58,523 bases of DNA from Nitrospirae bacterium MYbin3 (GTDB lineage: Bacteria > Nitrospirota > Thermodesulfovibrionia > Thermodesulfovibrionales > Dissulfurispiraceae): the NCBI GenBank assembly GCA_002753335.1, contig PEAD01000019.1:1-58523 (forward strand), read 5' to 3'. Numbering within the stretch: position 1 is the first letter of the stretch; each line of letters opens with the position of its first letter. The notes below the pieces were generated by a model. The model ran no database searches and was not told the DNA's origin. It was given only the letters and a program-made list of their open reading frames with translations. The position numbers and the translations under genes were made by a program. Below are positions 28,494 through 57,414 of this stretch, piece by piece.

Positions 28494-29687
28494 ATGAACA
28501 AACGCATCTTTTCATGGTGTCTTTTTGATTTTGCTAATTCCAGCTACTCGGCCGTAATAGCCGCTGTAATATTCCCTGTTTATTACACCAACGTCGTTGT
28601 CGGCAACGATGCAGGGCAAGGCGACCTCTGGTGGGGGCGGGCAATTTCCCTAAGCATGGCTATAGTGGCTTTAACATCACCTATCCTGGGCCGTCTGGCC
28701 GACTATTCAGGCCTCAGGAAAAAACTGCTCGGCCTTTACACTTTAATCTGCGCACTAGCCGTAGCGTCCTTATCGCTAATAGAAAAGGGAATGTTTCCCG
28801 AAGGATTTGTCCTTATAGTCATAGCCAATATCGGTATGGAGGGCGGGCTCGTTTTTTACAACTCATTCCTTCCTGTAATAGCCTCGCCTTCTGTTCAGGG
28901 AAGAGTCTCTGCATGGGGCTTCGCAATAGGCTATGCCGGCTCTATACTCTCGCTGATTTTTGCGCTGCTGCTCATCAAACAAAATCTGCTCAACTACGTT
29001 TGGCCTATGGTCTCTGCCTTCTTCATAATCTTTGCGCTGCCTTCATTTTTACTGCTGCCGACAGATGAACGGATTAAGCGGAATATGCCGCCAATCCTGT
29101 ATTCATTCAAAAAAATATTGAAAGAAAGAGAGGTAAGAAAGTTTCTCCTATCCTACCTCATTTATGAGGATGGGGTTAACACCGTAATAGTATTTTCGAG
29201 CATTTTCGCAGCCACAACACTCAAATTTTCGAGCGAAGAACTGATTATCCTTTATCTGCTCGTGCAGGTTACTGCCTTATCAGGTGCATTCGGTTTCGCA
29301 AAGGCCATAGATACTGCAGGCCCAAAGAAAGTGGTAATGCTTTCACTGGTATTATGGACTGCGGTTTCTTTTGGAGCAGCATTTGTTCACCAAAAAACAG
29401 CGTTTATGATTATCGCGGCGATTGCCGGAATCGGATTGGGAACTGTGCAGGCGGCCAGCAGAGCGCTTTACTCACGTTTTATTCCCGAAGGGCATGAAGC
29501 CGAATATTTCGGTGTTTATTCTCTCGTGGGGAAATCTTCGGCGGTGGCAGGCCCTCTTGTCTTTGGAGTTCTATCATCATTATTCGGCAGCCAAAGGCCT
29601 GCTGTTCTTGCGATAGCTCTGTTTTTCGTATCCGGACTGCTTATATTAAACAGGGTCAAGACCGGCTCGCCAAACAAAATAATTTAA
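28494..29687 (+). CDS. UMF1-family MFS transporter
   Basis: The 397-residue membrane protein has about twelve hydrophobic segments and begins SWCLFDFANSSYSAVIAAVIFPVYY, the UMF1 (Atg22-like) signature. GRLADYSGLRKKLLG near 65 is the typical loop between segments 2 and 3, and a long cytoplasmic loop around 195-215 separates the halves. Transported substrates are not known for most members; amino acids are a guess. It stands alone, divergent from clpS and 106 bp before the signalling cluster. Confidence 0.88.
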   Translation: MNKRIFSWCLFDFANSSYSAVIAAVIFPVYYTNVVVGNDAGQGDLWWGRAISLSMAIVALTSPILGRLADYSGLRKKLLGLYTLICALAVASLSLIEKGMFPEGFVLIVIANIGMEGGLVFYNSFLPVIASPSVQGRVSAWGFAIGYAGSILSLIFALLLIKQNLLNYVWPMVSAFFIIFALPSFLLLPTDERIKRNMPPILYSFKKILKEREVRKFLLSYLIYEDGVNTVIVFSSIFAATTLKFSSEELIILYLLVQVTALSGAFGFAKAIDTAGPKKVVMLSLVLWTAVSFGAAFVHQKTAFMIIAAIAGIGLGTVQAASRALYSRFIPEGHEAEYFGVYSLVGKSSAVAGPLVFGVLSSLFGSQRPAVLAIALFFVSGLLILNRVKTGSPNKII

Positions 29688-29714
29688 CAACTATCTTTTC
29701 GACCTGAATAGTGG

Positions 29715-29757
29715 TATGCTTTAGCATAACAGAAAATAGGCTATACCTCTTGGTATA
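29715..29757. promoter_or_regulatory. Two palindromes upstream of the signalling cluster
   Basis: TATGCT-TT-AGCATA (29715-29728) and TATACC-TCTT-GGTATA (29742-29757) are exact palindromes in the 106-bp gap before the CheB-CheR gene. Both could be operators; the second might also be a weak hairpin, but it lacks a T-run. No convincing -35/-10 pair was found. Confidence 0.35.
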
Positions 29758-29793
29758 TAAAGTTCAAAAACATTCCCTACAAAGAGGTTTAGC

Positions 29794-32436
29794 ATGACAA
29801 AGCAGCATAAAGCAGAACAAAAAAAGAAAAATTCCATAAACGTCAACCAACCATCAATACTAACAGATACAGCGTTAGAGACTAAAGAAGCAGAAATCGC
29901 TTTCCCGATAGTCGGCATCGGCGCATCGGCTGGAGGCCTTGAAGCACTGGAACAGTTTCTCAGCCATGTGCCGAAAAAAAGCGGCGCTGCGTTTGTGATT
30001 GTGCAGCATCTCGACCCCACACACAAGGGCATGATGACCGAACTCCTTCAGCGCTGCACCACCATGAAGGTCACGCAGGTCAAAGACCGCATGAAAATTG
30101 AACCTGATTGCGTATATGTAATTCCGCCTAACAGAGACATGTCCATACTGCACGGAACCCTTCACCTGATTGAACCTGTTGAACCGCGGGGCCTGCGTTT
30201 GCCCATAGACTCATTTTTCCGCTCATTGGCCGAAGACATGAGACACCTCAGCATCGGCGTAATACTTTCTGGCATGGGCAGCGACGGCACAAGAGGACTT
30301 GCAGCTATCAAAGAAAAAGCAGGGCTTGCCTTAGTGCAGGAACCCTCGACAGCCAGATTCGACGGCATGCCCCGAAGTGCAATAGATGCCGGATTTGCTG
30401 ATATTACAGCTTCCGCAGACAGTCTGCCCGAAAAACTGATGCAATACCTGAACACGGCCCATAGCATTAATAGAATTAATCCTGTGATTGAAGGCAAAAC
30501 AAAAAGCGCACTCGAAAAGGCTGTAATCCTTTTGCGCAGCAAAACAGGCAACGACTTTTCTCTGTACAAAAAGAGCACCGTTTACCGCAGGATAGAGCGT
30601 CGCATGAGCATTCACCAGATAGACAAAATAGATGTTTACATACATTATCTACAGGAAAACCCGAATGAGCTGGAGCTGCTGTTCAAAGAGCTGTTAATCG
30701 GGGTGACCAGTTTTTTTCGCGATCCCGCAGCGTGGGACAATCTAAAAACAAAGCTGATTCCTGAACTCATTTCAAAACGAAACAGCAACTATACCCTTCG
30801 GGCATGGATTCCTGGCTGTTCAACAGGAGAGGAGGCCTATTCACTTGCTATGGTGTTTAAAGAGGCGCTTGAAGAGGTCAATCCGAAAAAGATATTCTCT
30901 TTTCAGATATACGCGACCGACCTTGACCGCGATGCAATAGAGAAGGCGCGTCAGGGATTCTTCTCGGCAAATATAGCAACAGAGGTTTCTTCCGAACGAC
31001 TAAGACGTTTTTTTGTGAAGGAAGAAAACGGCTATCGCGTAAACAGAGAGATCCGCGAAATGGTGGTATTTGCCCCCCAGAATGTCATTATGGATCCCCC
31101 CTTCACAAAACTGGACATACTCTGCTGTAGAAACCTTCTGATATACTTCACCACAGAACTACAGAAGAAACTCATACCGATTTTCCATTACAGCCTTAAT
31201 CCGGGCGGCATCCTTTTTTTGGGGAGCGCCGAAACCATAGGCAGCTTTACGGATATGTTTGTGCCATGTGAGGGCAAGGACAGACTTTACAAGAAAAAAG
31301 AATCGGCTGTGGGCTCCAATCAGATAGAGTTTCCAACAGCATTCTTTCCATCAACTATCGACAATAACGCAAAAGGCATTGTCCACAAACCAGTAGAAAA
31401 CCTTCAATCTCTGGCTGACCAACTGCTGCTTCAAAGTTTTTCACCGCCTGCAGTACTGGTTACGCAACAGGGTGACATCCTATACATCAGCGGAAAGACC
31501 GGCAAATACCTTGAGCCTGCTGCCGGAAAGGCGAACTGGAATATCTTTGCGATGGCGCGCGAGGGGCTGCGCTACCACCTCGCAGCAGCATTCAAAAAAG
31601 CGCTCAAACAGCAGGAGCTTCTCAAGGTCAGGGGAGTAAAACTGGAAACCGAGGGAAGAACTCAGCTTGTTAACCTTACTCTGCAGGTTATCAGCGAGCC
31701 TGAATCGCTCAAGGGAATGGTGATGATAGTATTTGAGGATGCCTCTGAGCTCACAAAAACAAAGAGACATTCCGGCAGCAGAAAAATCTCTGACCATGAG
31801 GAAGCGGTTGAAGAACTCAAGCGCCAACTGCAGGAGGCGCGCCATGAACTGCAGTCTGCCCGCGAAGAGATGCAGTCTTCTCAGGAAGAGCTCAAGTCCT
31901 CCAATGAAGAGATGCAGTCCACAAATGAGGAACTCCAATCCACAAACGAAGAACTGACAACCTCAAAGGAAGAAATGCAGTCCCTCAATGAAGAGCTGCA
32001 GACGGTCAACGCCGAACTGCAGGCCAAGATAGACGAGCTTTCTCGCACAAGCGACGATATGAAGAACCTTCTAAACAGCACCGACATTGCAACATTGTTT
32101 CTGGACAACAACCTCAATGTGCGAAGGTTCACCACACAGGCAACCAATATTATCAAGCTTATTCCGGGTGATGTTGGCCGACCTGTTACAGATATTGTTT
32201 CTGACCTTCAGTATCCGACCTTGCCTGAGGATGCCCGCGAAGTATTGAGAACTCTTGTATTCACAAATAAAGAAGTCCCGGCAACAGATGGACGCTGGTT
32301 TGCGGTGCGCATAATGCCTTACCGTACGCAGGAGAGCATTATAGACGGTGTGGTCATAACATTCATGGAAATTACTACAGCTAAAAAACTTGAGGCCGAG
32401 CTGAGACGAGCCAATGACCAAACATCAGCGGCCTAA
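29794..32436 (+). CDS. CheB-CheR fusion (methylesterase/methyltransferase) with coiled coil and PAS domain
   Basis: The 880-residue chemotaxis-type protein has a CheB methylesterase domain (about 35-215; GIGASAGGLEALEQF with catalytic Ser, VIVQHLDP, LSGMGSDGTRG) and a CheR SAM methyltransferase domain (about 240-500; AWIPGCSTGEEAYSLAM, RNLLIYF). It continues with a long coiled coil (about 665-755) of repeated EE[ML]QS[ST]NEEL units and a C-terminal PAS domain. No receptor, CheA or CheW is nearby, so it probably serves the adjacent kinases or a distant receptor. Its end overlaps the next kinase by 23 bp. Confidence 0.93.
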   Translation: MTKQHKAEQKKKNSINVNQPSILTDTALETKEAEIAFPIVGIGASAGGLEALEQFLSHVPKKSGAAFVIVQHLDPTHKGMMTELLQRCTTMKVTQVKDRMKIEPDCVYVIPPNRDMSILHGTLHLIEPVEPRGLRLPIDSFFRSLAEDMRHLSIGVILSGMGSDGTRGLAAIKEKAGLALVQEPSTARFDGMPRSAIDAGFADITASADSLPEKLMQYLNTAHSINRINPVIEGKTKSALEKAVILLRSKTGNDFSLYKKSTVYRRIERRMSIHQIDKIDVYIHYLQENPNELELLFKELLIGVTSFFRDPAAWDNLKTKLIPELISKRNSNYTLRAWIPGCSTGEEAYSLAMVFKEALEEVNPKKIFSFQIYATDLDRDAIEKARQGFFSANIATEVSSERLRRFFVKEENGYRVNREIREMVVFAPQNVIMDPPFTKLDILCCRNLLIYFTTELQKKLIPIFHYSLNPGGILFLGSAETIGSFTDMFVPCEGKDRLYKKKESAVGSNQIEFPTAFFPSTIDNNAKGIVHKPVENLQSLADQLLLQSFSPPAVLVTQQGDILYISGKTGKYLEPAAGKANWNIFAMAREGLRYHLAAAFKKALKQQELLKVRGVKLETEGRTQLVNLTLQVISEPESLKGMVMIVFEDASELTKTKRHSGSRKISDHEEAVEELKRQLQEARHELQSAREEMQSSQEELKSSNEEMQSTNEELQSTNEELTTSKEEMQSLNEELQTVNAELQAKIDELSRTSDDMKNLLNSTDIATLFLDNNLNVRRFTTQATNIIKLIPGDVGRPVTDIVSDLQYPTLPEDAREVLRTLVFTNKEVPATDGRWFAVRIMPYRTQESIIDGVVITFMEITTAKKLEAELRRANDQTSAA

Positions 32437-34024
32437 ACCCGGACAAGAAGGTGCAGATTTGAGCAAAAATAAAACTGACAACAGTCTGCGCACCTCGGCA
32501 GAAAAGATGTTGAAAAAGAAAAATCTCATGCCTTTCCACGAGATGTCTGACGGACATGCCAATCTGCTTATGCATGAACTTCAGGTGCATCAGATAGAAC
32601 TTGAGCTGCAGAATGAAGAACTTACCCGGATGAGGGCTGAGCTTGAGGCAACTCTGGGCAACTACACCTCTCTTTATGATTTTGCGCCTGTGGGATATTT
32701 TGTGTTTGATGCATCCGGTGTTATCCGTTCGGTAAATCTTACCGGCGCAACCATGCTTGGTATTGAGAGATCGCTCATCATTAAAAAACGCTTCGGGAGT
32801 TTTGTTGATGAAGCTGACCTTCCGAAATGGAACAGTCACATAATAAACGTACAACAAAATGTAGAAAAACAGACCTGCGAATTGAAAATCAAGAGAGATG
32901 ATGGCACCAGTTTCTATGCCAGGCTTGAAAGTATAAGGGTGGATTCAGGTGATAAAGTCTTTGTAATTCGCACAGCAGTGAGTGATGTTTCTGAGAGCAA
33001 ACAAATGGAGAAGGCACTTAGGAAAAGCGAATATCTACTACAGACAATCATTGACACAGAACCTCAATGTGTAAAAATGCTTGATGCTGATGCCAACCTT
33101 ATCATGATGAATAAGGCAGGCCTTAAAATGATACAGGTTGATTCTCTTGATCAGGTAAAAGGCCAATGTGTCCGGCCGTTGATAGTATCTGAGCATTGGG
33201 AATCGTTCATGAACCTTACAAAGCGGGTGTTCATGGGAGAATCCGGCAGCTTGGTTTTCGAGATAACCGGGTTTAAAGGCAGACATTTATGGCTTGAAAC
33301 TCATGCCGTTCCTTTTAGAAACGAACAGAATGAAATTGTTGCCCTTCTCAGCGTAACTCTTAACATAACCGCGCGCAGGCAGGCGGATGAAAAAATCAGA
33401 AACCTTCTTGCCGAAAAAGATCTCATCCTCAAAGAGGTTCACCACCGCATAAAGAACAACATGAATGTCATTGCGGGCCTGCTCTCCTTGCAGGCCAATA
33501 TGCTCGAAAACCAAGAAGCTGTTGCGGCATTGAATGACTCTAAATCCCGTGTAATAAGCATGATGGCTTTGTACGACAAACTTTACCGCTCTGAATGCTT
33601 TTTAGAAGTATCGTTTAAGGGATACGCCACACTTCTTATAAACGAAATTACCGCAAACTTCGCAAACCGTAAAAAAGTCAGAATCGAAATCCATATTGAA
33701 GACTTTATTATCAGCGCAAAGTTGTTATCAACGGTCGGAATAATTATTAATGAAATTGTAACCAATGCGATGAAGCACGCCTTTTCGGGCAGAAAAGACT
33801 GCCTGCTGTCAGTATCAGCAGCGCTTAAGAATCAATACATTACCCTTGTTATAGAGGACAATGGGGTTGGTCTTCCTGAATTTATTGACATTCATGAGCC
33901 AAAAGGATTTGGGCTTCAGCTTCTCAAAATGCTTACAAAGCAGCTTGGAGGCAGCATGAAAATAGAACGGGAGCAGGGAACAAGGTTTATTTTAAAATTC
34001 AAACAACAACCGCAGGGTGAATAG
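32414..34024 (+). CDS. PAS-domain sensor histidine kinase, HisKA_2 type
   Basis: Soluble sensor kinase of 536 residues. A short N-terminal coiled coil (HELQVHQIELELQNEEL) is followed by two PAS domains (about 75-195 and 205-330), then the HisKA_2 phosphoacceptor EVHHRIKNNMNVIAGLLSLQ near 345, and an ATPase domain with NEIVTNAMKHAF and EDNGVGLPE. No membrane segment is visible. HisKA_2 kinases usually pair with stand-alone receivers, of which two lie downstream. Overlap with the CheB-CheR gene indicates translational coupling. Confidence 0.92.
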   Translation: MTKHQRPKPGQEGADLSKNKTDNSLRTSAEKMLKKKNLMPFHEMSDGHANLLMHELQVHQIELELQNEELTRMRAELEATLGNYTSLYDFAPVGYFVFDASGVIRSVNLTGATMLGIERSLIIKKRFGSFVDEADLPKWNSHIINVQQNVEKQTCELKIKRDDGTSFYARLESIRVDSGDKVFVIRTAVSDVSESKQMEKALRKSEYLLQTIIDTEPQCVKMLDADANLIMMNKAGLKMIQVDSLDQVKGQCVRPLIVSEHWESFMNLTKRVFMGESGSLVFEITGFKGRHLWLETHAVPFRNEQNEIVALLSVTLNITARRQADEKIRNLLAEKDLILKEVHHRIKNNMNVIAGLLSLQANMLENQEAVAALNDSKSRVISMMALYDKLYRSECFLEVSFKGYATLLINEITANFANRKKVRIEIHIEDFIISAKLLSTVGIIINEIVTNAMKHAFSGRKDCLLSVSAALKNQYITLVIEDNGVGLPEFIDIHEPKGFGLQLLKMLTKQLGGSMKIEREQGTRFILKFKQQPQGE

Positions 34025-34029
34025 TTTAG

Positions 34030-35391
34030 ATGGATGATATAGACAAGACCGGCAACCTCAGGCGGAAAGCAGAGGAAGAGTTTAAAAAGAGGAAGAAACT
34101 TTCTTCTTTTGAGCAAAAGGAGAAGGTTGACCTTCAGGCCATGGTCCACGAACTGCAGGTGCGGCAGAGTGAGCTTGAACTTCAGAACGAGGAGCTTATA
34201 CAGGCCCGTGAGAAAGAGCATAAACTCGAAGAGCAGCTCCGTCAGTCACAGAAGATGGAGGCCATCGGCGTGCTTGCAGCGGGCGTGGCGCATGACTTCA
34301 ACAACATTCTTACCGCAATAATCGGCTTTGGAGCTATGGCAAAAAAGAGGCTTAAAGAGGATTCCATATCCAAAGAATATATCGAAGAAATGCTTGCCGG
34401 AGCAGAGCGTGCGGCTGAACTCACACGAGGGCTTCTTGCCTTCAGCAGAAAACAGGTAATAATTCCAAAACTACAAAACCTTAACACTATAGTATTCACC
34501 ATCGAAAAGATGCTCAGCAGGCTTCTAAGGGAGAACATAGAATTTAAAACCGTTCTTAGCAGCAGCGATATTATTGTAAAGGTTGATGCATCGCAGATAG
34601 AGCAGGTGCTGCTGAACCTTGCGACCAATGCCCGCGATGCTATGCCTGACGGAGGGTATCTAATCATAGAGACAGGGGTTGCGGATATAGACAAACATTA
34701 CGCGGAGGCTAATCTTTTCGAAAATCCAGGCAGATATGCAGTGCTGACAGTATCAGATACAGGAATAGGGATGGCCCCCAAAACAAGCCTGAACATTTTT
34801 GAGCCGTTTTACACAACCAAGGAAGTCGGCAAAGGCACCGGACTTGGGTTGGCGATAGTTTACGGGGTCATCAAACAGCACGGCGGCAATATCAATGTGT
34901 ACAGCGAACCGGGCAAAGGCACAACCTTCAGGATATATCTGCCCTTGCTACAGTCAGCAGAAGATATAAAGCCCGAAATAGTCGAGGCAATACCTATGGG
35001 CAAGGGAGAAACGATACTGATAGCCGAGGATGAACCTAATGTAAGAAAAGTCAGCAGAATGTACCTTCAGGAATATGGCTACAAGACAATAGAAGCCGAC
35101 AATGGAGGGGAAGCTGTCAAAAAGTATAAAGAGAATGCTGATAAAGTTTCTCTTCTCCTTTTTGATATTATAATGCCTATAAAGAACGGCAGAGATGCCT
35201 ACGAAGAGATAAATAAACTCAACCATACTGTTAAGGTAATATTCATGAGCGGCTATACGGATGACATCGTCGCAAAGAAAGGAATACTGGAAGATGGCTT
35301 CGAATTTTTATCTAAGCCGCTCAATCTTGATACTCTGCTGAGGAAAGTAAGGGGGGTTTTGGACAGACAAAATGCTTTTAAAGAACAGTAA
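34030..35391 (+). CDS. Hybrid histidine kinase with C-terminal receiver
   Basis: Cytoplasmic kinase of 453 residues: an N-terminal coiled coil sharing ELQVRQSELELQNEEL with the upstream kinase, an NtrB-like phosphoacceptor (GVLAAGVAHDFNNILTAI, His near 91), an ATPase domain (NLATNARDAMPDGG, DTGIGM, GKGTGLGLAIVYG) and a C-terminal receiver with LIAEDEP, phosphoacceptor Asp in LLLFDIIMPIKNG and Lys in LSKPL. It has no sensory domain of its own, so input probably comes through the coiled coil. It starts 5 bp after its neighbour. Confidence 0.92.
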   Translation: MDDIDKTGNLRRKAEEEFKKRKKLSSFEQKEKVDLQAMVHELQVRQSELELQNEELIQAREKEHKLEEQLRQSQKMEAIGVLAAGVAHDFNNILTAIIGFGAMAKKRLKEDSISKEYIEEMLAGAERAAELTRGLLAFSRKQVIIPKLQNLNTIVFTIEKMLSRLLRENIEFKTVLSSSDIIVKVDASQIEQVLLNLATNARDAMPDGGYLIIETGVADIDKHYAEANLFENPGRYAVLTVSDTGIGMAPKTSLNIFEPFYTTKEVGKGTGLGLAIVYGVIKQHGGNINVYSEPGKGTTFRIYLPLLQSAEDIKPEIVEAIPMGKGETILIAEDEPNVRKVSRMYLQEYGYKTIEADNGGEAVKKYKENADKVSLLLFDIIMPIKNGRDAYEEINKLNHTVKVIFMSGYTDDIVAKKGILEDGFEFLSKPLNLDTLLRKVRGVLDRQNAFKEQ

Positions 35392-53214: not shown

Positions 53215-53493
53215 TTAAGAACCTTGCGGAGGGCCTTGTGTAATGCTTTTGAAGGCTTCTTCATCAGCCGACTCAAGAAGTTCGGCATATTCGCGTAACA
53301 GATTCAGAGAATCAAGAGCAGCAGCCTCATCTATCTTCTGAATGGCAAAGCCGGCATGCACAAGCACATACTCACCTATCTGCGCCTCTTCCGGCAGCAG
53401 TATAAGGCTTACATCCCTTCTTGCTCCCATAACATCAACAGTGGCAAGAAGATTATCTATGCTGATAACTTTTGAGGGGACCGCAAGACACAT
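53215..53493 (-). CDS. hypC: Hydrogenase assembly chaperone HypC/HupF
   Basis: Chaperone of 92 residues that brings the Fe(CN)2CO unit to the large subunit. The N-terminus MCLAVPSKVISID carries the essential Cys2, which fixes this start although it overlaps the protease gene by 37 bp. GEYVLVHAGFAIQKIDE near 45-62 is the second family motif. It is the last gene of the hydrogenase operon; hypA, B, D, E and F are not in the window. Confidence 0.95.
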   Translation of the reverse strand: MCLAVPSKVISIDNLLATVDVMGARRDVSLILLPEEAQIGEYVLVHAGFAIQKIDEAAALDSLNLLREYAELLESADEEAFKSITQGPPQGS

Positions 53494-53954
53494 TTTACAT
53501 TCAACTCCTGTAGTGTTTCTATTATAACCTGCACAAAGCGGGGAAATTTCTCTTTAAGGGTGTCTGTCATTTCGATGCCGACTTCGGTTGACAGAATCTG
53601 AATGCCCACAAGCCTCATTTTAGACGGCATCCTGTCCATCAGCTTCGTTGCTGCAACAACATCGTTAAGGCCTATATTATGAACCGAAAGCTTGGCCATA
53701 AGAACAGACGGGATGTCATCGTCTTCAATAACTCCGATAAACCCTGTCTCTTTGCCAAAGTTTACGGCATCGGCGATTACTATATTGTCGCGGTCTTCAA
53801 AATACGGAAGAAGGTCAAGGCCCAGCGTGCCTCCGTCGATTATCTCTATTTCGGGAGAGAATGAGTATCTCTCCCGAATATAGTTTGCCGCATGAACCCC
53901 GATGCCTTCATCCATCAGCAGGATATTTCCCAATCCTATGAGGGTTGTCTTCAA
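53457..53954 (-). CDS. Hydrogenase maturation protease (HyaD/HybD-like)
   Basis: Endopeptidase of 165 residues that removes the C-terminal tail of the large subunit after nickel insertion. GLGNILLMDEGIGVHAANY holds Glu16, ADAVNFG Asp62 and VHNIGL His92, the three predicted nickel-sensing ligands. Its target here is the tail after His554 of the large subunit. It starts 4 bp after the cytochrome gene. Confidence 0.93.
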   Translation of the reverse strand: MKTTLIGLGNILLMDEGIGVHAANYIRERYSFSPEIEIIDGGTLGLDLLPYFEDRDNIVIADAVNFGKETGFIGVIEDDDIPSVLMAKLSVHNIGLNDVVAATKLMDRMPSKMRLVGIQILSTEVGIEMTDTLKEKFPRFVQVIIETLQELNVKCVLRSPQKLSA

Positions 53955-53958
53955 AAAA

Positions 53959-54609
53959 TTACTTATCCCCCTTAGTCTTGTAACCGTTGAAAATAGATGT
54001 CAAAAGCCCGTTCTTCTCTATCATGTTATTGTGCAGAACAATGTAGATATGAGTTATGAAATACACAATAACAGCCCACATAATCAGATGGTGAACAAGT
54101 CTTACACCCGAACCGCTGCTCCCTGCAGGAACGAGCCAGCCACCCATAAGCGTCCAGAAAATACCGCCGTCATGAGACTGTGAATACAAGCCAAAGCCTG
54201 TCTGTATCGCAACAAAGAAAAGCGTGTACAAGACAGCGTATGTCAGTCCGGCAAGGGCAGTATGCCCGGCATAATGTCCGCAGTCTCCCTTGAGAAAACA
54301 GTAAAACTGCGCGGTCTCGGTAAGATTCTGACGGCGTTCGCTGCTAAGCGGCAGATACTGGTTGAACTTTACATACTTGTTGCCTGCGAAAGCCCAGTAT
54401 ATCCTTACGAAAAACGCTACGGTGAATACATAAGCGAACACAAAATGCAGAAATCTCATACTCGCCATTATGGATGAGTTTTCTGAACTGCCCAATATAT
54501 AGGGGCTTGCGATATAAAAACCGGTTACTGACAACACTACGATGGACAGGACATCCAACCAGTGGTTTACCCTTACCGGCAATTCCCAGACATATTCTTT
54601 ATTCGCCAT
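53959..54609 (-). CDS. Ni/Fe-hydrogenase b-type cytochrome subunit
   Basis: Membrane cytochrome b of 216 residues with four hydrophobic segments; it passes electrons from the hydrogenase small subunit to quinone. Likely haem histidines are in VRVNHWLDVLSIV (segment 1), FLHFVFAYVF (segment 2) and LVHHLIMWAVIVYFITHIYIVLH (segment 4). A GGAGG site precedes the ATG, nine bases after the large-subunit stop. Its presence places the enzyme at the periplasmic face of the membrane as an uptake-type hydrogenase. Confidence 0.93.
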   Translation of the reverse strand: MANKEYVWELPVRVNHWLDVLSIVVLSVTGFYIASPYILGSSENSSIMASMRFLHFVFAYVFTVAFFVRIYWAFAGNKYVKFNQYLPLSSERRQNLTETAQFYCFLKGDCGHYAGHTALAGLTYAVLYTLFFVAIQTGFGLYSQSHDGGIFWTLMGGWLVPAGSSGSGVRLVHHLIMWAVIVYFITHIYIVLHNNMIEKNGLLTSIFNGYKTKGDK

Positions 54610-54617
54610 GGCCCCTC

Positions 54618-56327
54618 CTATTTCACTTTGACTTTAAACAGCTCTTTTCCCTCTGAGTCCACAAGATGCACCGCGCAAGCCATGCAGGGGTCAAAAGAGT
54701 GTATGGTTCTCAAAATCTCGACAGGCTTGTTCGGATCGGCCACCGGCGTGCCTATCAAGGCTTCTTCAAAAGGTCCCCTCTGGTTCTTGGCATCTCTTGG
54801 CGAAGAGTTCCATCCACCTGGAACTACGCACTGATAGTTGGCAACCTTTTTGTCTTTAATCACTACCCAATGGCAGAGCGTGCCGCGCGGGGCTTCATGG
54901 AAGCCGTATCCCTTAGCCTCTGCAGGCCATGTGGAAGGATCCCATTTGTCGCCGTTGTGTATTTTGTAGTCGCCTTTTTTGATATTTGCAGCCAGATCAT
55001 TAATCCAGACAGGCAGCATCTCTGCGGTTACAAGACTAACTACGCCGCGGGCTGCTGTTCTGCCAAGTGTGGAAAATAAAGCCGTAGGCCCTACTCCGAG
55101 TTTGCCAAGCACGCTGTTTACAACCTCAACAATCCTCTTGTGGCCTGAAGCGTAAGCGACCAGAATTCTTGAGAGAGGTCCAACCTCGGTCGAAAGGCCG
55201 TCATATCTGACCGACTTAACCCAGCTGTATTTCTTGTCGGTCTCGAGCCATTCGTAAGGAGGCTTGGGCCCTGTGTAGTTCGGAGTGGTTTCGCCCTCAA
55301 ACGGATGTCTGCCCTTCTTGTCATCATCACTGTATTTGTACCACGCATGAGCAACATCTTCGGTAATCTTCTTATGGTCAATCGGCTCGACCTTAGAAAG
55401 ATTCTTGCCTCTAATAAATCCTGCAGGCAGCCAGCAGTTGGTTGAGTTGCTGACGTTGTCCTTCTGGAAGTCGCCGCAAGAGAGGAAATTGCCTACGCCT
55501 GCGCCGATCCCTGCCCATTCCTTATAGAAGGATGCAACCGCAAGCAGATCAGGAATATAAACCTTCTCGACAAATTCCTGCGCCTTCTGCGCGTAGCCGA
55601 GCATCATCGCGATAGTTCCTGCGTTTATCGCGTTCTGGCTGTTGGGGTCTATCGGAATCGACATTCCACCCACTAAAAATGTCTGAGGATGAGGATTCTT
55701 TGCTCCAAGGAACGCCTGCATCTTGATCACGTCCCTCTGCCATTCAAGAGCCTCAAGGTAATGCGCAACAGCCATAAGGTTAGCTTCGGCAGGAAGCTTA
55801 TAAACAGAATGCCCCCAATATCCGTTGGCAAATATGCCCAACTGTCCGCTCTCTACAAGTGTCTTAACCTTGCTCTGTACGGTCTTGAAATAAGCGGCAG
55901 AAGAGTTGTGCCAGTCTGATATGGACTGAGCCAAAGCAGAGGTCTTAGCCGGGTCGGCCTTCAATGCGCTTACAACATCAACCCAGTCTAATGCGTGCAG
56001 ATGATAAAAATGGATAACATGGTCCTGAACATACTGGATGCCCGAAATAAGATTTCTTATAATCCTTGCGTTGTCAGGAATCGTAATATTAAGTGCGTTT
56101 TCGACAGCCCTCACGGAGCTGGTGGAGTGAACCGTTGTTCAGACGCCTCATATACGGGACAGAAGCGCCCACACCTCCCTAGGATCTCTGTTCTTCACAA
56201 TAAGTTCGATGCCTCTCCACATGGTGCTCGAAGACCATGCGTCAACAACTTTGCCGCCTTCTATCTGGGCTTCTATTCTCAGATGCCCTTCAATTCTGGT
56301 CAAAGGGTCAATAGCTATTTTTGCCAT
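54618..56327 (-). CDS. [NiFe] hydrogenase large subunit with two in-frame TGA codons (predicted selenocysteines 60 and 63)
   Basis: Catalytic subunit, 569 residues if both TGA codons are read. ATG 56327 has AGGAGG seven bases upstream and opens the normal N-terminus MAKIAIDPLTRIEGHLRIEA. The frame then stays conserved through MWRGIELIVKNRDPREVWAL to the N-terminal nickel motif R58-I-x-G-V-x-T-T-V-H67. Codons 60 (56150-56148) and 63 (56141-56139) are TGA where the family has Cys. Downstream the frame is open to the C-terminal nickel motif D546-P-C-M-A-C551-A-V-H554, encoded by ordinary Cys codons, with a 15-residue tail for the maturation protease. An annotation beginning at GTG 56114 would lose the first 71 residues. 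It follows the small subunit by 16 bp. A pseudogene is possible but unlikely. Confidence 0.88.
56105..56121 (-). promoter_or_regulatory. Candidate SECIS stem-loop in the hydrogenase large-subunit mRNA
   Basis: Read on the minus strand, CAGCTC (56121-56116) pairs with GGGCTG (56110-56105) around a CGTGA loop: six pairs, one of them G-U. It lies 17 nt after the second TGA and 26 nt after the first, so the loop starts about 23 and 32 nt downstream. The loop has G as its second base. These fit the general form of a bacterial SECIS element that binds SelB. Confidence 0.5.
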
Positions 56328-56343
56328 TCTATATCCTCCTCAA

Positions 56344-57414
56344 TTATTTTTTATCTTCGGACTTGGATTTTGAAGACCTGATCGCAGCATGCACCGCAAC
56401 ACCTGCTGCTGCAGCGGCAGCAACACCCAGACCGATCTTGTCGGCTGTAGTCTGGTAGCCCGAGCCCGGAACATTAGGCAGTCTGGTGTACATAGAGCCC
56501 AACGCATCCCAACTCTGCGGCTGTCCGCAGGCAATGCAGCCATGACCTGCCATTACCGGCCAGCTCGTGCCTTCATTCCATCGTATGGTCGGGCAGTTCA
56601 TGTATGACTGAGGACCTTTGCAGCCCATCTCGTATAAGCACCAGCCCTTTCTGTGGCCGTCATCGCCCCACTTCCTGACAAACTGGCCTGCATCAAAATG
56701 TGTACGCCTCTCACAATTGTCATGGATTCTTTTTCCGTAAGCAAATAAGGGGCGGCCTTCCTTGTCGCACTGAGGAAGTGCGCCGAAGGTAAGATAATGG
56801 ACCACAGTAGCCGTAAGGTTTTCGCTGTTCATCGGACAGCCCGGCAGATTTATTACGGTAGCGTTAGGCACAGCCTGCTTTACGCTGACAGCGCCGGTAG
56901 GATTAGGAGCAGCCGCAGCCACTCCGCCATAACTGGCGCAGGAACCCACAGCTATTGTTGCGAGGGCGTTTCCACAAACCTCTTTTGCCATATCAATGGC
57001 GGTCTTGCCGCCAATACAGCAATAAACGCCGCCATCTTTCATAGGGATAGAACCCTCCACAATAGCTATATACTTGCCTTTGTGGTTCTTTACAACATCG
57101 TTCAAAGACTTCTCTGCATTCTTCCCTGACGGAGCCATAATCGTTTCATGGTACTCAAGAGAAATCACATCGAGCACCAACTGCGCGATGGTAGGCTTTG
57201 TTGACCTGAGAATCGATTCTGAATCCCCCGCACAATCCTGAAACTCAAGCCAAACAACATACGGTTTCTGCTTCTTTTCCAGAGCTTCTGCTATCTGTGG
57301 AACTACGGTTGACTGCAAACCAAGCGTCGCAGCCATTGTACTGCAGAAGGTCAGAAAATTTCTTCTTGAGATCCCCCGCTTGGAAAGATCACTAAAGAGG
57401 CTTTCATCCTGCAT
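56344..57414 (-). CDS. [NiFe] hydrogenase small subunit, Tat-exported, with Asp in the proximal-cluster motif
   Basis: Electron-transfer subunit of 356 residues. The Tat signal is S-R-R-N-F-L-T-F near 17-23. The proximal [4Fe-4S] site normally reads C-T-G-C; here it is C61-A-G-D64, with the other ligands C159 (VGSCASYGG) and C193 (PGCPMNSEN) in place. Distal ligands are H231, C234, C259 and C265; medial ligands C274, C293 and C296. A hydrophobic C-terminus (330-345) anchors it to the membrane near the cytochrome b. A three-Cys, one-Asp proximal cluster is known from group 1h (actinobacterial-type) hydrogenases. It is the first gene of the operon. Confidence 0.94.
   Translation of the reverse strand: MQDESLFSDLSKRGISRRNFLTFCSTMAATLGLQSTVVPQIAEALEKKQKPYVVWLEFQDCAGDSESILRSTKPTIAQLVLDVISLEYHETIMAPSGKNAEKSLNDVVKNHKGKYIAIVEGSIPMKDGGVYCCIGGKTAIDMAKEVCGNALATIAVGSCASYGGVAAAAPNPTGAVSVKQAVPNATVINLPGCPMNSENLTATVVHYLTFGALPQCDKEGRPLFAYGKRIHDNCERRTHFDAGQFVRKWGDDGHRKGWCLYEMGCKGPQSYMNCPTIRWNEGTSWPVMAGHGCIACGQPQSWDALGSMYTRLPNVPGSGYQTTADKIGLGVAAAAAAGVAVHAAIRSSKSKSEDKK

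What the first reader, a model, noticed from the sequence alone, without database searches (positions are those of the whole stretch)
56139..56150. Two TGA codons replace both N-terminal nickel-binding cysteines of a [NiFe] hydrogenase
The large-subunit frame from ATG 56327 is conserved throughout and broken only by TGA at codons 60 and 63. These are exactly the two Cys of the R-I-C-G-V-C motif, giving R-I-U-G-V-U if read as selenocysteine. A chance pair of nonsense changes hitting only these two codons, with everything else intact, is very unlikely. Described [NiFeSe] enzymes carry a single Sec in the C-terminal D-P-C-x-x-C motif; here that motif is all Cys. Nickel would be held by two Sec and two Cys, including one bridging Sec. 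Ordinary gene callers start at GTG 56114 and lose the motif.
Basis: partly seen in the sequence, partly recalled or inferred. Interest (0 to 1): 0.97.

Follow-up and report, generated by a model that had tools for sequence, protein, structure and literature searches.

The report
Hydrogenase with paired nickel-binding selenocysteines
A bacterial hydrogen-splitting enzyme gene carries two UGA codons exactly where two of its four nickel-holding cysteines should be, the same pair recurs in dozens of other genomes, nearly all of those checked carrying selenocysteine machinery, and the enzyme is therefore predicted to hold its nickel with two selenium atoms at positions where the reviews read here list none in nature.

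Summary
Confirmed and extended. The minus-strand large-subunit frame (56327-54618) is open except for TGA at codons 60 and 63, both cysteines of the N-terminal nickel motif (RIUGVU); the C-terminal motif is all Cys. It is conserved, not decay: of 92 hydrogenase loci read from this genome and relatives, 59 are UxxU, 15 CxxU, 18 CxxC. A capped scan of public genomes fetched 80 matches: 65 are hydrogenases (28 UxxU, 37 CxxU; nine repeat genes of the first set), from several phyla. The genome carries SelA, SelB, a Sec-bearing SelD and one tRNA-Sec, the only UCA anticodon among its tRNA hits. A covarying hairpin follows, its loop 23-24 nt after the second UGA and 32-33 nt after the first, both inside the published bSECIS range; CxxC relatives do not conserve it. 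The genome's second, Mvh-type hydrogenase has CxxU there. Most likely this is an uptake [NiFe] hydrogenase with nickel held by two Sec and two Cys, including a Ni-Se-Fe bridge, one SECIS serving both codons. Decoding as Sec is inferred; no protein or reads were available. Ten paper searches, with passages read from fourteen papers, showed no natural N-terminal Sec in a hydrogenase.

The parts
56344..57414 (-). Hydrogenase small subunit, Tat signal, 356 aa
   Evidence: TIGR00391 hydA and Tat signal domain TIGR01409 over cut-off; PF14720, PF01058; nearest solved chains Hyd-2/Hyd-1 type small subunits
54618..56327 (-). [NiFe] hydrogenase large subunit, 569 aa with two UGA codons read through
56148..56150 (-). 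TGA codon 60, predicted Sec, position of the N-terminal terminal nickel ligand
   Evidence: terminal role recalled from solved [NiFe] hydrogenases
56139..56141 (-). TGA codon 63, predicted Sec, position of the N-terminal ligand that bridges Ni and Fe
   Evidence: bridging role recalled from solved [NiFe] hydrogenases
56105..56121 (-). Candidate bSECIS hairpin. Family register: 6-bp stem, loop CGUGA (56115-56111), 23 nt after UGA 63 and 32 nt after UGA 60. In the window itself the lowest-energy register is loop GUGA (56114-56111) with one bulged U, 24 and 33 nt. The GTG that ORF callers use as start (56114) lies in the loop
   Evidence: control; published model
56133..56135 (-). Thr codon ACG (sixth codon counted from the first UGA); its silent G tracks the first UGA across relatives
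   Evidence: noticed after the fact
54675..54686 (-). C-terminal nickel-ligand codons Cys548 to Cys551 (CMAC), all cysteine
53959..54609 (-). Ni/Fe-hydrogenase b-type cytochrome subunit
   Evidence: TIGR02125 over cut-off
53457..53954 (-). HyaD/HybD-type hydrogenase maturation protease
   Evidence: TIGR00072 over cut-off; TIGR00140 140.5 bits, under its cut-off of 151.8

Best explanation
This is a [NiFe] hydrogenase operon whose large-subunit gene carries in-frame UGA at both N-terminal nickel-ligand codons, and both UGAs are most likely decoded as selenocysteine through one shared downstream hairpin (a predicted SECIS), so that nickel would be held by two selenolates, one terminal and one bridging to iron, and by the two C-terminal cysteine thiolates. 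Shown by sequence: the two UGAs, their conservation in other genomes, the Sec machinery genes, and a conserved covarying hairpin. Inferred: SelB carries Sec-tRNA to each UGA in turn, docked on the hairpin whose loop lies 23-24 nt after the second and 32-33 nt after the first. Inferred: the Tat-signalled small subunit and b-type cytochrome make it a membrane-bound enzyme that passes electrons from H2 to quinone. Inferred: the selenolates make the site harder to damage irreversibly by oxidation, or tune its redox chemistry, as Sec does in classical [NiFeSe] enzymes. The bridging Sec probably came first, since CxxU relatives are common and UxxC was not found.
For: Frame and motif. Relatives: with motif counts (92 loci: 59 UU, 15 CU, 18 CC; 58 of the 86 genomes covered carry UU). 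Public genomes: 65 of 80 fetched matches are hydrogenases (28 UU, 37 CU; nine are identical over 63 nt to loci of the first set, leaving 21 UU and 35 CU) in Chloroflexota, Nitrospirota, Thermodesulfobacteriota, Bacillota, Krumholzibacteriota and others. Sec machinery. All 34 general tRNA hits were typed by ARAGORN and none has anticodon UCA; tRNA-Cys is GCA; the tRNA-Sec locus alone has UCA. SelA is over cut-off in 69 of 72 genomes with a UxxU or CxxU hydrogenase, partial in one, absent in two. Hairpin: on 85 U-bearing sequences 87.8% of cells pair against 82.3% in shuffles (0 of 500 as high), covariation 0.165 against 0.090 (0 of 500), with A-U/U-A/G-C, G-C/C-G and C-G/U-A swaps; 14 CxxC relatives show 58.3%, as their shuffles do, and no double change. 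Hairpin at -5 kcal/mol or lower within 16-37 nt, one bulge allowed: group 1 CU 33 of 33, UU 73 of 79, other CU 16 of 16, group 1 CC 7 of 14, against 27%, 42%, 30% and 35% in synonymous resampling. Silent third bases: GTG at codon 13 in 76 of 77 UU against 3 of 14 CC. Second hydrogenase of the same genome: RICGVU.
Against: No reads, transcript, peptide or selenium measurement. Rfam gives no SECIS match at this place. RNAalifold on 85 U-bearing sequences keeps only the three inner pairs, as one subgroup pairs in a shifted register with a bulge. On the named helix the number of further pair types does not exceed shuffles (5 against 6.9), and the number of pairs with a change on both sides does so only weakly (3 against 2.1; 55 of 500 shuffles as high). 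The first version of the hairpin test, without bulges, passed only 63% of UU at -5 kcal/mol (21% resampled). Synonymous-codon z-scores for UU are modest (median -1.03; 3 of 77 under -2). Six of 79 UU sequences have no hairpin at -5 or lower, and 7 of 14 CxxC have some hairpin that strong, mostly elsewhere. SelA was not found in G086 (UxxU) and G097 (CxxU), though both have SelD. That a single hairpin serves both UGAs rests on distance alone. Function, membrane location and O2 role are inferred from relatives.
Confidence: 0.88

Rival explanations
1. Only the second UGA (bridging position) is decoded efficiently as Sec; the first UGA mostly terminates translation, so full-length UxxU enzyme is rare or selenium-regulated.
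For: In CxxU relatives a hairpin at the same place follows the second codon alone. The first UGA lies 32-33 nt from the loop, near the upper end of the published 16-37 nt range.
Against: The first UGA is kept in 87 of 157 motif loci (78 of 145 after removing stretches identical over 63 nt), in at least two phyla, and both flanks of the UGA pair are under purifying selection. A silent base (codon 6 ACG) goes with the first UGA in about 7 of 9 independent switches and on average in none against, which suggests selection for decoding it.
Confidence: 0.07
2. UGA is read as cysteine (or another residue) by a suppressor tRNA, so the protein is an ordinary four-cysteine enzyme.
For: Opal tRNA-Cys genes that resemble tRNA-Sec have been reported in deltaproteobacteria (recalled; the paper was not held). 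Cys is the residue in CxxC relatives.
Against: All 34 general tRNA hits of this genome were typed and none has anticodon UCA; tRNA-Cys is GCA; only the tRNA-Sec has UCA (the genome is 93.7% complete, so a missing gene is possible). A SECIS-like hairpin tracks the UGA. SelD in this genome is a canonical Sec SelD.
Confidence: 0.03
3. Pseudogene or assembly error: two nonsense changes in a dying gene.
For: The window is a contig of a fragmented assembly (66 contigs, 93.7% complete).
Against: Same two codons in 59 of 92 loci from separate assemblies, one of them a single-contig genome (G006). Frame otherwise open. pN/pS about 0.2 on both sides.
Confidence: 0.01
4. The annotated 498-aa product from GTG 56114 is the real protein, a hydrogenase-like subunit without the N-terminal nickel ligands.
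For: Protein databases list it so: 63 of the 120 nearest database proteins are under 510 aa and start after the motif (120 listed of 8000 scored).
Against: The codons upstream are conserved in frame as protein, and residues such as R11, E13, G14, H15, R38, G39, E41, P49 and R58 are invariant in 34 aligned sequences. The GTG lies in the hairpin loop.
Confidence: 0.01

Closest known systems
Classical [NiFeSe] hydrogenases (HysA of Desulfovibrio, Dm. baculatum; VhuU/VhuA and FrhA of methanogens)
   Different: Known alpha subunits carry one Sec, in a UxxC motif (2026 review table), which is the C-terminal one (recalled). Here two Sec are predicted in the N-terminal motif and the C-terminal motif is CxxC. 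Sequence is far nearer to Cys-type group 1 enzymes (685 bits to 3myr_B, 322 to the best [NiFeSe] chain). HysA and NiFeSe NCBIfam models are under cut-off.
Membrane-bound group 1 [NiFe] hydrogenases (Allochromatium vinosum 3myr, E. coli Hyd-2 and Hyd-1)
   Different: Two nickel ligands are UGA-encoded; the second Cys of the small subunit's proximal-cluster motif is Asp (CAGD against CTGC).
Laboratory Cys-to-Sec variants of E. coli Hyd-1 and Hyd-2
   Same: Each of the four nickel Cys, N-terminal ones included, was replaced singly by Sec and studied (passages in PMC11212049 and PMC13111528).
   Different: Those are engineered single replacements; here evolution appears to have made a double one, kept in many lineages.
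Other UxxU selenoproteins (Prx-like thiol:disulfide oxidoreductase, metal-binding protein, FmdB family in the review table)
   Same: Two Sec three residues apart.
   Different: They are not listed as hydrogenases or nickel-site ligands.

Membership tests
Group 1 [NiFe] hydrogenase large subunit | Sequence and fold of the nickel-dependent hydrogenase family | tested here: met
Group 1 [NiFe] hydrogenase large subunit | Four cysteine nickel ligands in two CxxC motifs | tested here: not met
   N-terminal pair is UGA-encoded, C-terminal pair is Cys; member by descent, variant at the ligand set
Group 1 [NiFe] hydrogenase large subunit | Operon with Tat-signalled small subunit and membrane cytochrome b | tested here: met
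   TIGR00391, TIGR01409, TIGR02125 over cut-off
Classical [NiFeSe] hydrogenase | Sec at the first position of the C-terminal motif | tested here: not met
   DPCMAC in the window; DPCxxC in each relative whose C-terminal motif was found
Classical [NiFeSe] hydrogenase | Match to curated NiFeSe models | tested here: not met
   NF033181 530 bits against 600; NF045518 389 against 780
Classical [NiFeSe] hydrogenase | Selenium bound to nickel in the purified enzyme | not testable with these tools
   needs protein
Bacterial selenoprotein | In-frame UGA aligned with Cys in homologues and conserved | tested here: met
Bacterial selenoprotein | Complete Sec trait in the genome (SelA, SelB, SelD, tRNA-Sec) | tested here: met
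Bacterial selenoprotein | bSECIS: 4-16 bp stem, 3-9 nt loop with G in first two positions, 16-37 nt from UGA, MFE at most -7.5 kcal/mol (model in PMC13188914, passage) | tested here: met
   6 bp; loop CGUGA at 23 and 32 nt, or in the window's own lowest-energy register GUGA with a bulged U at 24 and 33 nt; fold of 50 nt downstream -9.1 kcal/mol, the hairpin alone -7.1, so the energy limit is met by the stretch and just missed by the hairpin taken alone
Bacterial selenoprotein | Match to a curated Rfam SECIS family | tested here: not met
   no SECIS family among matches up to E 10 in window 55950-56350; the review says many putative bSECIS resemble neither each other nor the E. coli ones
Bacterial selenoprotein | Sec found in the protein | not testable with these tools
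   needs mass spectrometry

The most novel reading that the evidence does not exclude
Nature has built a [NiFeSe2] hydrogenase: both N-terminal nickel ligands are selenocysteine, one of them a Ni-Se-Fe bridge, inserted twice, nine bases apart, from a single SECIS. The class is widespread in Nitrospirota and Chloroflexota, with single bridging-Sec (CxxU) enzymes of both group 1 and Mvh type in many more phyla, and has been hidden because gene callers cut the protein after the motif.
Probability: 0.8. Interest if true: 0.95.

Novelty: new variant of a known kind. Interest (0 to 1): 0.92.

Why it matters
If true, the nickel site of [NiFe] hydrogenases naturally accepts selenium at positions that, in the papers seen here, were changed only in the laboratory, including the ligand that bridges nickel and iron, and accepts two at once. 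That gives evolved answers to how ligand chemistry sets oxygen resistance and bias of hydrogen catalysts. It also means that hydrogenases of this kind are cut short in protein databases, and it offers a natural test of how a single SECIS can direct two Sec insertions nine bases apart.

Tried and rejected
Chance or decay: rejected by conservation and selection. Cys-inserting suppressor: no second UCA tRNA among the tRNA hits. UxxC (terminal Sec alone): a pattern scan of 395 genomes gave 0, and none of 157 motif loci shows it (the 65 public loci among them were found with a pattern that demands UGA at the second position and could not have shown it). Link of the small-subunit Cys-to-Asp change with Sec: rejected, because CxxC relatives (G010, G014, G023) also have CxxD and Chloroflexota UxxU enzymes have CxxC (the script read the motif in only part of the loci); it looks like a clade trait. 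Rfam for a known SECIS: nothing. RNAalifold alone was weak, so the named helix was counted with controls. The independent-pair test for the hairpin-loop codon GTG against the second UGA had only 3 pairs and is uninformative. The codon 6 association was picked after looking at 21 codon columns, so its p of 0.016 is uncorrected. A census of another phylum by the genome search was not possible. Papers: ten searches; I read only passages, of fourteen papers, no whole text and no supplement. The PNAS 2021 variant paper and the tRNA paper were not held. One passage (PMC8318568) mentions Sec in a methyl-viologen-reducing hydrogenase of a deltaproteobacterium without giving the position in the text shown, so single N-terminal Sec in Mvh-type enzymes could already be listed there or elsewhere.

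Full report

It is conserved. In 150 genomes (149 relatives of the same order and the own one), orthologues at 65-96% identity keep two in-frame TGA. I read the motif in 92 loci (three of the own genome, 89 of relatives; not every match was fetched, and some loci are fragments or second copies): 59 UxxU, 15 CxxU, 18 CxxC, none UxxC. By genome, 58 of the 86 covered have UxxU. A pattern for TGA at the second position, with Cys or TGA at the first, matches 83 of 395 genomes of the phylum, and the reversed pattern 0 of 395; the UxxC pattern matches 0 of 395. Nine of the 65 are identical over 63 nt to loci of the first set, so 56 are further genes (21 UxxU, 35 CxxU). Of the 65, UxxU: 14 Chloroflexota, 10 Nitrospirota, 4 of other or unplaced label. 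CxxU: Thermodesulfobacteriota 10, Chloroflexota 6, Bacillota 6, Nitrospirota 5, Krumholzibacteriota 3, others 7. Contigs of equal length link G handles to named Nitrospirae records (for example G132:C73 and L151, 93505 bases; G100:C49 and L165, 117812 bases), so the window's phylum is most likely Nitrospirota (inference).

It is under selection as protein on both sides. Against L001, 81 UxxU sequences give pN/pS 0.22 over 57 codons before and into the motif and 0.18 over 30 codons after it, pN<pS in 81 of 81 each (some sequences are the same gene from two collections, and synonymous differences upstream are near saturation). A quick maximum-likelihood tree of 145 sequences, the two codons masked, needs 15 changes among UU, CU and CC, so the state switched several times (quick method, some long branches).

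The cell can make Sec. The genome (2.93 Mb, 66 contigs, 93.7% complete) has tRNA-Sec (71.3 bits against cut-off 47; ARAGORN anticodon tca), SelB (368.8 against 242.25), SelA (617.5 against 267.9) and SelD (361 against 125), and SelD has Sec in SCAGUAAK. All 34 general tRNA hits were typed: none has UCA, and tRNA-Cys is GCA. Among 72 genomes with UxxU or CxxU, SelA is over cut-off in 69, partial in G105 and absent in G086 and G097, which both have SelD. SelA is common in the order (129 of 150 over cut-off), and 10 of the 14 genomes in which only CxxC was read also have it, so this is a consistency check rather than a strong contrast.

A SECIS-like hairpin follows. In the window it is CAGCUC-CGUGA-GGGCUG, 56121-56105. 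In the family register the loop CGUGA lies 23 nt after UGA 63 and 32 nt after UGA 60; in the window's own lowest-energy register the loop is GUGA with one bulged U, 24 and 33 nt. [quoted passage not shown] 50 nt downstream of UGA 63 fold at -9.1, the hairpin alone at -7.1. On 85 of 110 distinct VH-type U-bearing sequences (25, mostly with a differently built stem, were left out before the count) 87.8% of pair cells are standard, against 82.3% in shuffles (0 of 500), and 33-57% when slid; three pairs show double changes (A-U 35, U-A 10, G-C 9; G-C 56, C-G 9; C-G 81, U-A 3), though the number of such pairs (3 against 2.1) and of pair types (5 against 6.9) does not stand out from shuffles. Fourteen CxxC relatives give 58.3%, equal to shuffles, and no double change. 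Allowing one bulge, a hairpin of -5 kcal/mol or lower with its loop 16-37 nt after the second codon occurs in 33 of 33 group 1 CxxU (one of them, L178, is Mvh-like but sorted here by my VH rule), 73 of 79 UxxU, 16 of 16 other CxxU (14 Mvh type, two of a further type), 7 of 14 group 1 CxxC and 2 of 4 other CxxC; synonymous resampling gives 27%, 42%, 30%, 35% and 23%. In 73 of 79 UxxU sequences that loop lies within 16-37 nt of both UGAs; of the CxxC hairpins only 2 do. Without bulges UxxU gives 63% against 21%, CxxU 91% against 15%, CxxC 14% against 17%. Silent sites agree: codon 13 is GTG in 76 of 77 UxxU, 28 of 33 CxxU and 3 of 14 CxxC. RNAalifold keeps only the three inner pairs and Rfam has no match.

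A second silent signal. The Thr codon ACG, sixth from the first UGA, is ACG in 73 of 77 UxxU, 6 of 33 CxxU and 3 of 14 CxxC. On the tree it goes with the first UGA in on average 6.9 of 9 independent switches among sequences that all have the second UGA, and on average in none against it (median p 0.016; chosen after seeing the data). This hints at an RNA requirement peculiar to the double insertion; its nature is unexplained.

Why it was missed. Of the 120 nearest database proteins listed (8000 scored) 63 are under 510 aa and begin after the motif; of the 57 longer ones the motif was read in 52, each CxxC. No NCBIfam model matched by the large subunit reaches its cut-off.

How it probably works. 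Small subunit with Tat signal and b-type cytochrome suggest a membrane-bound enzyme on the outer face that feeds electrons from H2 to quinone (inference and known group 1 enzymes). Sec at one nickel position in classical [NiFeSe] enzymes is associated with protection from irreversible oxidation (PMC10298544, PMC13188914, passages). The same genome has an oxidase subunit with a COX1 domain near the second hydrogenase, so contact with oxygen is plausible. Which property the double Sec changes is not shown.

Comparison and novelty. The 2026 review table lists Sec in hydrogenase alpha subunits as UxxC, one per protein, and other reviews describe one Sec ligand (passages). Engineered E. coli enzymes have each of the four nickel Cys replaced singly (passages). 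I found no report of natural N-terminal Sec in ten searches of an open-access library, which lacks most subscription papers; supplements were not open to me, and PMC8318568 names a Sec-bearing methyl-viologen-reducing hydrogenase without position in the passage seen. It works like a [NiFeSe] hydrogenase (inference), is by descent a group 1 [NiFe] hydrogenase, and fails the defining C-terminal Sec of the classical [NiFeSe] family.

Noticed in passing
L002 / L289 (G000:C63, about 29437-34801): The same genome's second hydrogenase is an Mvh-type large subunit with RICGVU (single UGA at the bridging position), in a small subunit-large subunit-protease-HdrA-like-MvhD cluster; its C-terminal motif is DPCLSC.
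   Followed up: partly
window 57225-57223 (small subunit residue 64): The second cysteine of the proximal iron-sulphur cluster motif is Asp (CAGD); Asp or Asn is common in this clade, also in some CxxC relatives. A 3Cys-1Asp proximal cluster is recalled for an actinobacterial-type hydrogenase (5aa5).
   Followed up: partly
window 56135-56133: Silent base of Thr codon ACG tracks the first UGA across relatives in independent switches.
   Followed up: partly
G000:C46:39158-40081 (L290): SelD of this genome is itself a selenoprotein (SCAGUAAK).
   Followed up: yes
L148, L150: A further hydrogenase type in Bacillota (Desulfopertinax and a Firmicutes MAG) has RICGVU-PISH with C-terminal DPCIAC, another lineage with UGA at the bridging position.
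   Followed up: no
L147 (Desulfotruncus alcoholivorax DSM 16058): A strain with a culture-collection number carries an Mvh-type CxxU hydrogenase, a practical organism for testing.
   Followed up: no
L289 13717-17326: A COX1-domain oxidase subunit and a FixG-like protein near the second hydrogenase suggest that the organism can respire oxygen.
   Followed up: partly
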